From the NCBI GenBank assembly GCA_937891465.1, contig CALAHF010000028.1:1-32763 (forward strand): a stretch of 32,763 nt of DNA, written 5' to 3'. The DNA comes from an uncultured Verrucomicrobiales bacterium (GTDB lineage: Bacteria > Verrucomicrobiota > Verrucomicrobiia > Verrucomicrobiales > DEV007). Of this stretch, positions 14,117 through 17,134 are shown one piece after another. The notes under the pieces were generated by a model. It saw only the letters and a list, made by a program, of their open reading frames with translations, searched no databases and was not told the DNA's origin. A program made the translations under genes and the position numbers. Every line of letters starts with the position of its first letter. Within the stretch, counting starts at the first letter, position 1.

Positions 14117-14839
14117 ATGAATAACCTTTTTAAAACCGAGCAGGAGTTTCTCGCGCTCGAAGACGACATTGTTTCTGCCACGGAACTTCCCGCAGATGCG
14201 ACCGCCTCGAAGATTGCCTATGAAACGGCCACCTTTGGCATGGGATGATTTTGGGGACCTGACTCCCAGTTTGGGAGTATCGACGGCGTTCTACGGACTC
14301 GGGCGGGCTACTGCGGCGGCACGAAAAAATCGCCGACGTATCGCAGCATGGGCGATCATACCGAAGCATTTTCGGTCGATTTTGATCCCACCGCGTTAAG
14401 CTACGAAGACCTGCTTTCCATTTTTTGGAGCGGTCATCGCGCGACAACGAATCATCACAGCTCGCAGTATATGAACGCTGTCTTTTATCGGAACGATGCC
14501 CAAAAAGCACTCGCCGAAAGCACTCGTGATGCCGCTGCTGCTGAACTTGGGATTGATCCGGAGAAAGTCGCGACGCACTTGCTACCAATCGGCGATTTCA
14601 CCTATGCGGAAGAGTATCACCAAAAATATTACCTGACGCAACGCCCCGAAATTCGCGACTTTTTGAGCAGCGTTTATCCCGAAGGAAAGCAACTCGCCGA
14701 CTCCACTGCGGCGACATTGCTGAACGCCTATTTGGGAACGGGCATGGCGAAGAATTGGTCTGCATTTGCAGATGCGCTGCCGACTTTTGGATTGCCGGAA
14801 TCGCTTGAAAAACGGATTCGGCAAGCGGTGATTAGTTGA
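14117..14839 (+). CDS. msrA: Peptide methionine sulfoxide reductase MsrA, putative selenoprotein (TGA = Sec44)
   Basis: The frame opens at ATG 14117 and runs to TGA at 14839, with a single internal TGA at 14246-14248; 240 residues if it is read as selenocysteine. The internal TGA falls exactly on the catalytic Cys of the MsrA signature: ATFGMG-U-FWGPD (U44) replaces the family's GCFWG. Downstream family features are intact in the same frame: RTRAGYCGG (Cys66, probable resolving Cys and the only Cys in the protein), SPTYRSMGDHTEAF (Glu83 catalytic region), SYEDLLSIFWSGH, SQYMNAVFY and AEEYHQKYYL. A hairpin 13 nt after the TGA has bacterial SECIS geometry. MsrA reduces methionine-S-sulfoxide; Sec usually raises its rate. 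The last 50 residues are a C-terminal extension. The gene lies 34 nt after the sulfatase and may be co-transcribed. The alternative is a nonsense allele of a Cys-type MsrA, but no other damage is seen. Confidence 0.82.
14246..14248 (+). other. Putative selenocysteine codon (TGA) in msrA
   Basis: In-frame TGA at codon 44 of msrA, at the position of the catalytic Cys in the GCFWG motif. Family-conserved sequence continues without a break on both sides. Confidence 0.8.
14262..14278 (+). promoter_or_regulatory. Putative bacterial SECIS hairpin
   Basis: Perfect 6-bp stem ACTCCC (14262-14267) and GGGAGT (14273-14278) with the 5-nt loop AGTTT. The apical loop starts 19 nt after the TGA and has G at its second position. 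These values agree with the published bacterial SECIS model as I recall it (short upper stem, loop 16-37 nt from UGA, G in the first two loop bases). SelB would bind this hairpin. It lies inside the coding frame. Confidence 0.65.
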
Positions 14840-14854
14840 TGCTTTCCGAACCAC

Positions 14855-15929
14855 TCACTGGTTCCAAAAGTCGTGCATGAATTCCGCCGACGGAATTTCG
14901 ACTGGACGAACAATCCGAAATCCAAGCCATACGGCTTCCGGAAGCCACCAGATCGAATCGGTTTCTTCCCATGGAATAGAAATCGAAGAGTTAGCAACTT
15001 CGCGATTGGCACTCCGCAATTGATCTGCGGTATCATACTAGGATCCACCACGCATTACTCGCGGGAATCGTTCGCTCGGCCATACAACGGGATCCGTGAA
15101 ACGGCGTCCTGTATCAAATCGCTTTTGATAAAGATCCGGATAGTAGCGATCACAAACCCATTCAAAAACGTTTCCATGCATATCGTAGAGGCCCCAAGGA
15201 TTTGGTTTTTTCGTGCCGATTTTGGCGTAAGTGACCCGAGTTTGATCGGGATCCAAAATCGCAAAATCCGCTAGCTCGACTTCGTCACAGGAATAAAGCC
15301 CGGTTGATCCTGCGCGGCAGGCATACCCCCATTCCACTTCAGTTGTAAGTCGATAAAAATGAACAGCTTGAGCCGATAACCACTGACAGAATTTCTTAGC
15401 CCCAAACTGCGTCATTCGAACGGCTGGATATTCATCTGAAAATCCCATTCCCAAATCCAAACTTCCCCCATCCGGAACCCACATTTGAGAGGGAGCTGAA
15501 ATCAATTCGTGAAGTTCAAGATCCCGCTACTTCTTCTCGCCATCTATATTTGAATCGTAATTCTCGCGCACATCGCGCCAGAAGGCACTGTATTGGATCC
15601 AGTTCACTTCGTATTTCCCCATCCAAAAATCTCCTACCCTCACCTGATGTTGCGAACCTTCATCAGCATCTCGATCAGGCTCTTCCGGTGGACTCCCCAT
15701 CAAGAATTCCCCGCCTTCGATAAAGACCATCTCATACTCAGCATCTCTTGCCTCTGGGATTGTGCTCGTATAATTATTCAGAATCTGACCTTTCGGAGCC
15801 TCCCGAATTTTTTTCAAAAATCATTAGGCTGATTTCTTTCTCAGTCCGCTTTCCGTTTCCGTCTTTACCGATAAAAGTCAGCATCAGAATCCCGATCATG
15901 ATGGCGAGGCAAATCAAAATAATTTTCAT
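14855..15929 (-). pseudogene. SUMF1-domain protein, decayed tandem copy (one frameshift, two amber stops)
   Basis: A second SUMF1 (formylglycine-generating-enzyme-like) gene lies directly after the intact copy; its ATG (15929) overlaps that gene's TGA as ATGA. It starts with a signal peptide (MKIILICLAIMIGILMLTFI). An extra base in a run of seven A (15808-15814) then shifts the frame. The body aligns with the intact paralog throughout (FLMGS, FWMGKYEV, FCQWLSAQ, YACRAGSTG, PWGLYDMHGNVFEWV). It carries in-frame TAG at 15527-15529 and again at 15038-15040. The second TAG replaces the Trp of RGGSW, a single G-to-A change from TGG. After it the frame stays open and homologous (YDTADQLRSANR, then VWLGFRIV) to a TGA at 14855. 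TAG ends the neighbouring PQQ and NHL genes normally, so decay is more likely than recoding. Confidence 0.88.
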
Positions 15930-17134
15930 GGATTCGCTTCTACTGGAATTTTGTAAATGGGATCATCCCAATTCGGCAGAACATCGGTATCCTTGTAGTG
16001 CATGTTTCCGGAATTCCACATCTCAAACATGTCTTCCTCCGAAGGGATTTCGTCGGAGCGTACGAGACGAAATCCTAGCCATTGAGCGTCGGTGAGATAC
16101 CAAATTGATTTGGGCAACTGCGGATCCTGAATCTGCCAGGAAGTATCGGAAAAAATCCGTCTAGCCGAACGACATTCGTAAGCTGGATCATACCAAGATC
16201 CCCCGCGCGCCACTCTCGGATATCGCTGGGTCGGCCGCACCCACGGATCATCTATCGGCTCGGTAGCCCCTGAACGCTCCTCATAAGCTCTCGCATCGTA
16301 GCCGTCCATGGTCCATTCCATGACGTTTCCGTGCATGTCGTAGAGCCCCCACTGATTGGGTTTTCGGGAACCCATCTTGACATAACCGTCACGAATCTGT
16401 TCAGGATCAATAACCGCGTAGTCTTCAATTTCATCCGGCGGACAACTGAATGCGCCAGTGGTTCCAGCACGGCAGGCGTATTCCCATTCGGCTTCGGTGG
16501 GGAGTCTGTAAAAATCACCCGTCTGCATGGAAAGCCACTGGCAGTATTTACTGGCAGCATGATGCGTCATACAGATGGCGGGAAATCGACGCCCTATACC
16601 CATTCCAAAACTCATTTCCATGTAGGGCGTCGAAGGAGATGAAGTCCAATCGACCAGTCGCCCCAAATTTTGTTTAGTATCACGATAACCGTTCGGATGC
16701 CGAGAGACATTCGTGATCATGTAAGGTTGGTATTCCGCCCATGAAACCTCGAATTTCCCCATCCAAAATGGACTGACTCGAACCTTGTGCTGCGGTCCTT
16801 CATCTTCAAAGCGATCCGGCTCGTTTTCATCGCTTCCCATCAAAAATGTTCCGCCATCGATCGCGATCATTTCAAAATCGACGCCCGTTTCTGGAATCGT
16901 TCCGGTATACCCCTTGAACGCGGCGGCCTCGTTTTTTGCCTTTTTCGCGAGAATGGCTTCGCGAATTTTGCGGATCATCTCGCGCTCATTCAACTCCACC
17001 GACGGAATAAGTCCCCCTCGAAAACGCCAGTTATACAAGAGGGCTGCATCCTCTGTTTTCGCAGTCTGATTTTCAGTTTCGCCTTCACACCCAAGAAGGG
17101 CGAATGCGAATAAAATGGCACTCCAATTTCTCAT
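15926..17134 (-). CDS. SUMF1/formylglycine-generating-enzyme-like domain lipoprotein
   Basis: 402 aa. Lipoprotein signal with lipobox FALLGC (Cys16), a linker, then a SUMF1 domain from about residue 85: FEMIAIDGGTFLMGSDENEP, HKVRVSPFWMGKFEVSW, YCQWLS, YRLPTEAEWEYACRAGTTG, NQWGLYDMHGNVMEW, RYPRVARGGSWYDPAYECRSARR, and AQWLGFRLVR. The family includes sulfatase-activating FGE, ergothioneine synthase EgtB and many uncharacterised members. Only one Cys (Cys321) is present where true FGE has a CxxxxC pair, so it is probably not the maturase for the two Cys-type sulfatases in this window; a binding or structural role is equally possible. It is followed by a decayed copy with an ATGA overlap. Confidence 0.88.
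   Translation of the reverse strand: MRNWSAILFAFALLGCEGETENQTAKTEDAALLYNWRFRGGLIPSVELNEREMIRKIREAILAKKAKNEAAAFKGYTGTIPETGVDFEMIAIDGGTFLMGSDENEPDRFEDEGPQHKVRVSPFWMGKFEVSWAEYQPYMITNVSRHPNGYRDTKQNLGRLVDWTSSPSTPYMEMSFGMGIGRRFPAICMTHHAASKYCQWLSMQTGDFYRLPTEAEWEYACRAGTTGAFSCPPDEIEDYAVIDPEQIRDGYVKMGSRKPNQWGLYDMHGNVMEWTMDGYDARAYEERSGATEPIDDPWVRPTQRYPRVARGGSWYDPAYECRSARRIFSDTSWQIQDPQLPKSIWYLTDAQWLGFRLVRSDEIPSEEDMFEMWNSGNMHYKDTDVLPNWDDPIYKIPVEANP

What the first reader, a model, noticed from the sequence alone, without database searches (positions are those of the whole stretch)
14117..14839. MsrA with TGA at the catalytic cysteine: a probable selenoprotein
One reading frame runs from ATG 14117 to 14839 with a single internal stop, TGA at 14246-14248, exactly where MsrA has its catalytic Cys (GMG-U-FWG for GCFWG). 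Upstream and downstream family sequence are intact and in the same frame. Sec-type MsrA is known from a few bacteria and algae; I know of none described in Verrucomicrobiota. Standard gene callers would start at ATG 14348 and lose the active site. TGA is also an ordinary stop in this window (UnbV, GAF and secG genes).
Basis: partly seen in the sequence, partly recalled or inferred. Interest (0 to 1): 0.92.

Follow-up and report, generated by a model that had tools for sequence, protein, structure and literature searches.

The report
Selenocysteine-containing MsrA repair enzyme
A bacterial enzyme that repairs oxidised methionine is almost certainly built with the rare amino acid selenocysteine at its active site, read from a codon that normally means stop; the enzyme type is known, and our searches found no earlier report of it from this group of bacteria.

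Summary
In detail: frame 14117-14839 is an intact MsrA (Pfam PMSR, 2.4e-37) with one internal stop, TGA 14246-14248, at the catalytic cysteine. The selenoprotein reading is strongly supported. The genome has selA, selB (with winged-helix domains), a selD-type fusion, a putative selenate transporter beside selB, and a tRNA-Sec(UCA) gene split over two overlapping contig ends. In a scan of named genomes, 49 of 49 verrucomicrobial loci that reach the codon have TGA, two of them cultured strains; no Cys form of this clade turned up in the phylum. The 20 genomes with the gene among 190 relatives all match selA (19 over the cut-off, one a fragment; 66 of 190 overall). A hairpin at 14262-14278, 13 nt after the TGA, G in its loop, is kept against synonymous codon choice across 51 genes, and one of its pairs flips C-G to G-C: a bacterial SECIS. 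The protein has the C-terminal helical domain of the Clostridium oremlandii selenoprotein MsrA, but in 48 of 48 clade members also a Cys at one of two alternative positions (66 or 109), a possible resolving Cys. Sec-MsrA is a known kind; new is its spread through Verrucomicrobiales. Protein-level proof is lacking.

The parts
14117..14839 (+). msrA coding sequence, read through the internal TGA: 240 codons plus ordinary TGA stop
   Evidence: same layout in 49 of 49 verrucomicrobial loci covering the codon; start codon not proven
14246..14248 (+). TGA read as selenocysteine (residue 44, catalytic position of MsrA)
14262..14278 (+). SECIS-like hairpin (RNA): 7-bp stem, loop GUU at 14269-14271, 13 nt after the TGA
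   Evidence: synonymous-shuffle mean z -2.30 over 51 genes, the only such peak of 45 positions; coupled codon choice; window alone not above shuffles
14225..14641 (+). MsrA catalytic domain (PMSR, residues 37-175)
   Evidence: AlphaFold model mean pLDDT 93.9
14312..14314 (+). Cys66 codon (GYCGG), the only Cys besides residue 44; candidate resolving Cys
14645..14836 (+). C-terminal helical domain (about residues 177-240) of the C. oremlandii selenoprotein-MsrA type

Best explanation
The gene encodes a selenoprotein peptide-methionine (S)-S-oxide reductase (MsrA) whose catalytic cysteine is selenocysteine. Ribosomes reach UGA 14246-14248; SelB with GTP and selenocysteinyl-tRNA-Sec(UCA) binds the hairpin just downstream (14262-14278) and delivers Sec instead of termination; the second UGA (14837-14839) ends the protein. 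The Sec selenolate attacks methionine-S-sulfoxide and methionine leaves. The oxidised selenium is then resolved either by Cys66 inside the protein (selenenyl-sulfide, then thioredoxin-like reduction) or directly by an outside partner such as glutaredoxin, as in C. oremlandii MsrA; we cannot decide between the two. The C-terminal helical domain probably holds the active site in shape, as shown for C. oremlandii. Shown by computation: frame, family, active-site residues, machinery, conserved TGA, selection on the hairpin. Inferred: actual Sec insertion, enzyme activity, the way of regeneration.
For: Family and residues; the C. oremlandii active-site residues Tyr47, Glu55, Gln89, Tyr90, His137, Tyr140 (PMC4333827, passages) align by my counting with Y75, E83, Q117, Y118, H168, Y171, all invariant in the 18 TGA proteins of A1 (18 of 21 matches used). 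Machinery in the same genome: selA 496 bits; selB 283-295 bits with SelB-wing_2 and wing_3; selD 276-278 bits as part of an oxidoreductase fusion; tRNA-Sec(tca) once two contig ends with a 41-nt overlap are joined; TIGR04553 putative selenate-binding protein beside selB, 253 bits, cut-off 250. Conservation: TGA in 49 of 49 verrucomicrobial loci covering the codon and in 20 of 21 matches among 190 relatives, the other a fragment that starts after the codon; the two sets share genomes. Co-occurrence: 20 of 20 genomes with the gene match selA, 19 over the cut-off and G008 by a fragment, against 66 of 190 overall. tRNA-Sec over the cut-off in 14 of those 20; ARAGORN agrees in 13. Purifying selection on both sides of the TGA. 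Hairpin. Structure.
Against: No protein or selenium data. The window's hairpin alone folds no better than dinucleotide shuffles (z -0.03 and -0.15); its support comes from the family. On well-supported branches only 3 independent codon switches count, too few for significance (p 0.25). tRNA-Sec was not found at E 1e-7 in 5 of 20 genomes with the gene, and the own copy is broken by a contig end. The selD-type fusion also matches TIGR04369 'fusion_not_SelD' (497 bits, under its cut-off of 700) and two other SelD models under their cut-offs, so its SelD activity is likely but not certain. 46 of the 66 genomes with selA show no such MsrA at 1e-30, so selA does not imply this gene. The 20/20 figure ignores kinship. 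How the enzyme is regenerated is unknown.
Confidence: 0.96

Rival explanations
1. A pseudogene or a sequencing/assembly error: the codon is really TGC/TGT, or the gene is broken by a nonsense mutation.
For: One internal stop in an otherwise intact gene is what a young nonsense mutation or a base error looks like; the assembly is fragmented (229 contigs).
Against: Same TGA in 49 of 49 verrucomicrobial loci covering it, two of them from cultured strains; dN/dS 0.03-0.18 after the TGA and 0-0.41 before it, each in the 11 of 13 hand-picked pairs with defined values; invariant active-site residues downstream.
Confidence: 0.01
2. TGA is read as another amino acid (code change or near-cognate read-through), with no selenium involved.
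For: An in-frame TGA with selection downstream would also fit a recoded UGA; Cys insertion at Sec UGA is known when selenium is short (recalled).
Against: TGA is an ordinary stop here, 18 of 36 hand-picked ORFs; the only in-frame TGA of the gene sits at the catalytic Cys; selA, selB, selD and tRNA-Sec are present and selA co-occurs with the gene; a hairpin kept against codon choice lies where a bacterial SECIS belongs.
Confidence: 0.02
3. Translation restarts at ATG 14348 and yields a 163-aa protein without the active site that has another role.
For: The ORF 14348-14839 is open.
Against: It lacks the catalytic residue and the first strands and helix of the model; the stretch between the TGA and 14348 is strongly conserved (FWGPDS, GY.GG invariant or nearly so).
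Confidence: 0.01

Closest known systems
Selenoprotein MsrA of Clostridium (Alkaliphilus) oremlandii, CoMsrA (PDB 4LWJ, 4LWK, 4LWL, 4LWM, 4U66; 4W8C without the helical domain)
   Same: Sec at the GUFWG position; catalytic plus C-terminal helical domain aligned (profile 25-225, E 4e-59 for 4LWJ; Foldseek TM 0.88 by target over 206 columns for 4LWL); same active-site residues.
   Different: About 35% identity. CoMsrA has no Cys at all (PMC4333827, passages); the window protein has Cys66, and 48 of 48 members of its clade have Cys at 66 or 109. Other host lineage; reductant untested.
Sec-MsrA of other bacteria and of algae (Syntrophobacter fumaroxidans in a table of PMC1794560; 9 listed in the GOS survey PMC2398784; Chlamydomonas, recalled)
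   Same: Sec reported in MsrA.
   Different: No passage seen reports one from Verrucomicrobiota; whether they carry the helical domain was not tested.
Ordinary Cys-MsrA, including the one in the same genome (L002, G000:C217) and E. coli 1FF3
   Same: PMSR family and fold of the catalytic domain.
   Different: Cys at the catalytic codon; align only over the catalytic domain (to profile position 163-168); L002 and nine phylum copies lie on the other side of a 100/99 branch.
Nearest non-verrucomicrobial homologues: two Dehalococcoidia (L135, L138), two Thermoplasmatota (L137, L142), Halorutilus (L139), two Carnobacteriaceae (L140, L143), bacterium UBA2219 (L141)
   Same: Matches of 35-45% identity that reach query residue 206-235, into the helical domain.
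   Different: TGA only in L138; the other seven have TGC or TGT. None of the eight has the extra Cys at +22 or +65.

Membership tests
Bacterial selenoprotein | In-frame UGA at a position where homologues have a redox Cys, flanked by conserved family sequence | tested here: met
Bacterial selenoprotein | UGA conserved among orthologues under purifying selection | tested here: met
   49 of 49 verrucomicrobial loci covering the codon
Bacterial selenoprotein | SelA, SelB, SelD and tRNA-Sec in the genome | tested here: met
   SelD is a fusion that also matches 'fusion_not_SelD' under its cut-off; tRNA-Sec only after joining two contig ends that overlap by 41 nt
Bacterial selenoprotein | SECIS hairpin immediately downstream of the UGA, small apical loop containing G (features as in passages of PMC1088965) | tested here: met
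   single-sequence fold not significant
Bacterial selenoprotein | Selenium actually present in the protein | not testable with these tools
   needs 75Se labelling or mass spectrometry
C. oremlandii-type selenoprotein MsrA | PMSR catalytic domain with GC/UFWG and the active-site Tyr, Glu, Gln, Tyr, His, Tyr | tested here: met
C. oremlandii-type selenoprotein MsrA | C-terminal helical domain | tested here: met
C. oremlandii-type selenoprotein MsrA | 1-Cys/Sec type: no resolving Cys | tested here: inconclusive
   no Cys position is shared by all, but Cys66 or Cys109 is present in 48 of 48 clade members: 8 only 66, 24 only 109, 16 both; whether either resolves is untested
C. oremlandii-type selenoprotein MsrA | Reduction by glutaredoxin, higher activity with Sec than Cys | not testable with these tools
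   enzyme assay needed

The most novel reading that the evidence does not exclude
Selenocysteine in MsrA is an old, fixed trait of Verrucomicrobiales: no return to cysteine was seen in this clade, and the SECIS inside the active-site coding region steers protein evolution, so that Gln/Glu/Arg at residue 51 (and in L103 even Ser to Val at residue 54) changes only together with codon changes that keep the hairpin. The clade also turned a 1-Sec enzyme into a Sec/Cys pair with a resolving Cys at either of two places (66 or 109). The gene type is shared with Dehalococcoidia, where L138 uses Sec and L135 has Cys, shows no tRNA-Sec, and keeps the hairpin as a relic.
Probability: 0.45. Interest if true: 0.55.

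Novelty: new member of a known kind. Interest (0 to 1): 0.45.

Why it matters
It extends a selenocysteine enzyme to a large, mostly uncultured bacterial order and to two cultured strains, where it can be tested directly. MsrA start and active site will be miscalled in such genomes by tools that treat every TGA as a stop. It is also a natural case of an RNA element and a protein active site evolving in one stretch of sequence.

Tried and rejected
Single-sequence folding of the region after the TGA gave no excess stability over dinucleotide shuffles; the family-wide synonymous-codon test was used instead.

Operon partner: ORF clustering in flanks of up to 6 kb of 51 verrucomicrobial loci and the window gave no neighbour shared by more than 19 loci (the 14 widest clusters were printed). 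A sulfatase ends 34 nt upstream in the window; sulfatases end 48 and 173 nt upstream of the match in L136 and L114. No functional link is claimed.

Reductant: VPGUxxT type-2 thioredoxin-like proteins (NF041383) occur in 10 of 22 genomes searched, besides the MsrA's own hit in G000; an MsrA-like stretch in their tail reaches Pfam's cut-off in 1 of 4 tested, lies under it in 2 and is absent in 1. The window genome has only one weak partial hit (7.8e-4), so they cannot be the general partner.

The 66/109 pattern is suggestive only: none of 48 lacks both (chance 0.002 if rows were independent), but on the tree only 3 supported independent pairs exist and the test is not significant.

tRNA-Sec in the own genome first looked absent by Rfam's cut-off; the 39.7-bit hit at a contig end was followed up. 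The two hits in the L135 genome (49.2 and 45.5 bits) are tRNA-Ser by ARAGORN.

Full report
OBSERVATION. Searches confirm the frame 14117-14839 with a single internal TGA at 14246-14248. Translated with TGA as U the protein has 240 residues; Pfam PMSR matches residues 37-175 at 2.4e-37 and TIGR00401 msrA is over its cut-off. The TGA stands at the catalytic cysteine of MsrA (GCFWG).

MACHINERY. The window lies in a genome of 5.97 Mb in 229 contigs, 95.6% complete. It holds selA (496 bits), selB (283-295 bits) with the winged-helix domains SelB-wing_2 and SelB-wing_3, and selD (276-278 bits, cut-off 125) as the C-terminal half of a 748-aa fusion with a pyridine-nucleotide oxidoreductase. The fusion also matches TIGR04369 'fusion_not_SelD' at 497 bits, under its cut-off of 700, and PRK00943 and PRK14105 SelD models under their cut-offs; SelD activity is likely, not certain. 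Beside selB, on the same strand, lies a phosphonate-type ABC transporter whose binding protein is just over the cut-off of TIGR04553, putative selenate ABC transporter (253.1 against 250). tRNA-Sec scored under Rfam's cut-off because it is cut by a contig end; contig C120 ends with the missing 3' part, the contigs overlap by 41 nt, and the joined sequence is a 95-nt tRNA-SeC with anticodon tca by ARAGORN. By eye it resembles the complete gene of the other genome of the genus (L164).

CONSERVATION. Among 190 related genomes, own included, 20 have a match at E 1e-30 or better. Of the 21 matches 20 contain a TGA (L043 also a TAA) and one (G060) is a fragment that begins after the codon. selA matches 66 of 190 (63 over the cut-off) and all 20 of these 20, G008 only by a fragment; 20 of 20 by chance has probability 7e-11, which ignores kinship. 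46 of the 66 selA genomes have no such MsrA at 1e-30. tRNA-Sec was found at E 1e-7, over Rfam's cut-off, in 14 of the 20, 13 of them also by ARAGORN (not L169 of G063); in the own genome it needed joining; in G020, G034, G042, G055 and G065 it was not found. A scan of the named genome collection gave 70 loci, some from the same genomes. 49 verrucomicrobial loci (one titled only 'Bacterium') cover the codon and all 49 have TGA; two more are fragments without it. One of the two search patterns (GCFWGPDS) needs a Cys codon, so the scan favoured Cys forms; none came up in Verrucomicrobiota. In a phylum-wide draw of 387 genomes 12 matched at 1e-30: the own gene and G139 with TGA, and ten at 1e-30 to 1e-32; nine of these ten were read and have Cys, L080 was not read. 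Elsewhere, a Dehalococcoidia MAG (L138) has TGA and its genome a tRNA-SeC; another (L135) has TGC, and the two tRNA-Sec hits in its genome (1.9 Mb, completeness not told) are tRNA-Ser.

SELECTION. In 13 hand-picked pairs, dN/dS after the TGA is 0.03-0.18 in the 11 with defined values, before it 0-0.41 (11 defined). Active-site residues are invariant in the 18 proteins of A1.

THE HAIRPIN. From the T of TGA as 1, nt 17-33 (window 14262-14278) form a 7-bp stem with loop GUU. Alone it is no more stable than shuffles. Over 51 TGA genes (49 verrucomicrobial, L138, the window), shuffling synonymous codons within each gene gives mean z -2.30 (median p 0.04) for nt 13-39; over the other 44 positions the lowest mean z is -0.84. 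In 12 Cys genes the same position has mean z -1.02, median p 0.37 (their lowest elsewhere is -1.15, five genes); L135 keeps all six pairs counted, L141 and L143 four, the others fewer. Two forms exist: where the codon of residue 51 begins with C (Gln, Arg) the Gly codon is GGG in 18 of 18; where it is Glu GAG the Gly codon is GGA, GGT or GGC in 33 of 33 and Phe is TTC in 33 of 33 (TTT in 12 of the 18), against a background of 21% GGG and 47% TTC. The pair at nt 22 thus flips from C-G to G-C by changes on both sides. L103 replaces Ser by Val and still closes the stem. With L135 and L141 added (53 rows) both traits change 7 times on the tree; on well-supported branches 3 of 3 independent pairs go together, a control codon does not, and 3 pairs cannot reach significance. 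The distant second TGA-MsrA of G020 (L045) has a like hairpin. Position and a G in a small apical loop agree with bacterial SECIS elements as described in PMC1088965 (passages).

WHAT KIND OF MsrA. The best solved chains are the C. oremlandii selenoprotein MsrA, aligned over catalytic and C-terminal helical domain (4LWJ E 4e-59, profile 25-225), while MsrAs of other organisms align only to profile position 163-168, and so does the C. oremlandii form without helical domain, 4W8C. 7C13, whose title names a glutaredoxin, holds a chain named MsrA with the same sequence stretch. The AlphaFold model (mean pLDDT 93.9) finds seven full-length chains of these entries first (TM 0.88 by target for 4LWL). 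PMC4333827 (passages) says that CoMsrA has a single Sec and no Cys, needs the helical domain for activity, is 20-fold more active with Sec than Cys, and is reduced by glutaredoxin, not thioredoxin. Here 48 of 48 proteins of the verrucomicrobial clade have a Cys at residue 66 (8), 109 (24) or both (16); L132, L133 and the eight nearest homologues outside Verrucomicrobiota (L138 among them) have neither. This may be a resolving Cys at alternative places; the association is not significant on the tree. The own genome also has an ordinary Cys-MsrA (L002).

TREE. 48 verrucomicrobial TGA proteins form one clade (97/94); L132, L133 and L045 fall outside it, with CoMsrA, Dehalococcoidia, Thermoplasmatota and Carnobacteriaceae proteins, partly on long branches; ordinary MsrAs are on the other side of a 100/99 branch. 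Whether Sec is ancestral to the helical-domain family is open.

LITERATURE. Reviews of 2022 and 2026 (PMC9312934, PMC13188914; passages) list MsrA among prokaryotic selenoproteins; the latter gives the motif GUFWG/H 'in certain bacteria'. The GOS survey (PMC2398784, passages) lists 9; a table of PMC1794560 (passages) lists one in Syntrophobacter; PMC1088965 (passages) one judged eukaryotic. PMC4807772 (passages) reports planctomycete selenoproteins without MsrA in the main text. No passage seen reports a Sec-MsrA from Verrucomicrobiota. The search selenoprotein + Verrucomicrobia + MsrA found one paper, on SELO; searches showed none in the listed titles and abstracts. The library lacks most subscription papers and no supplements were read.

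VERDICT. A genuine selenoprotein gene, of a known kind, seen here as a widespread trait in Verrucomicrobiales; protein-level proof outstanding.

Noticed in passing
G000 contigs C120 end, C113 start, C156:623-691 (L180, L003, L181): A 66-69-nt copy of the 3' part of tRNA-Sec, ending in the anticodon arm, lies on another contig: it looks like an attachment-site scar of an element that integrates into the tRNA-Sec gene, and it may have broken the assembly there. No integrase was recognised by eye among the ORFs of the 2.2 kb read; no family search was made.
   Followed up: partly
window 14855-15817, minus strand: Sulfatase-modifying-factor (FGE-like) gene with two in-frame TAG stops (15527-15529 and 15038-15040) and an otherwise open frame; TAG is an ordinary stop in 5 of 36 hand-picked ORFs, so a decaying copy beside an intact FGE-like gene at 15926-17134 is likely.
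   Followed up: partly
L182-L185 and further loci: VPGUxxT type-2 thioredoxin-like proteins with an in-frame TGA in several relatives; a tail stretch resembling a degenerate MsrA domain reaches Pfam's cut-off in L182, lies under it in L183 and L184, and is absent in L185.
   Followed up: partly
L019 10300-16012 (G000:C39): selB sits beside a phosphonate-type ABC transporter with a putative selenate-binding protein (TIGR04553), a possible selenium uptake system.
   Followed up: partly
L045 (G020:C28:7414-7998): A second, distant MsrA with TGA at the catalytic codon and a like hairpin in a genome that also has the main form.
   Followed up: partly
L135 and L138 (Dehalococcoidia): One Dehalococcoidia MAG has TGA-MsrA and tRNA-SeC; another has TGC but keeps the complete hairpin and shows no tRNA-Sec: a candidate Sec-to-Cys switch.
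   Followed up: partly
residues 66 and 109 of the clade proteins: Each of 48 clade members has Cys at one or both of two positions, and the homologues outside have neither: a possible movable resolving cysteine.
   Followed up: partly
L146-L152, L154: A near-identical short Cys-MsrA recurs in Acinetobacter, Aeromonas, a Shewanella plasmid, Hydrogenophaga, Diaphorobacter and Limnobacter, which suggests a mobile copy.
   Followed up: no
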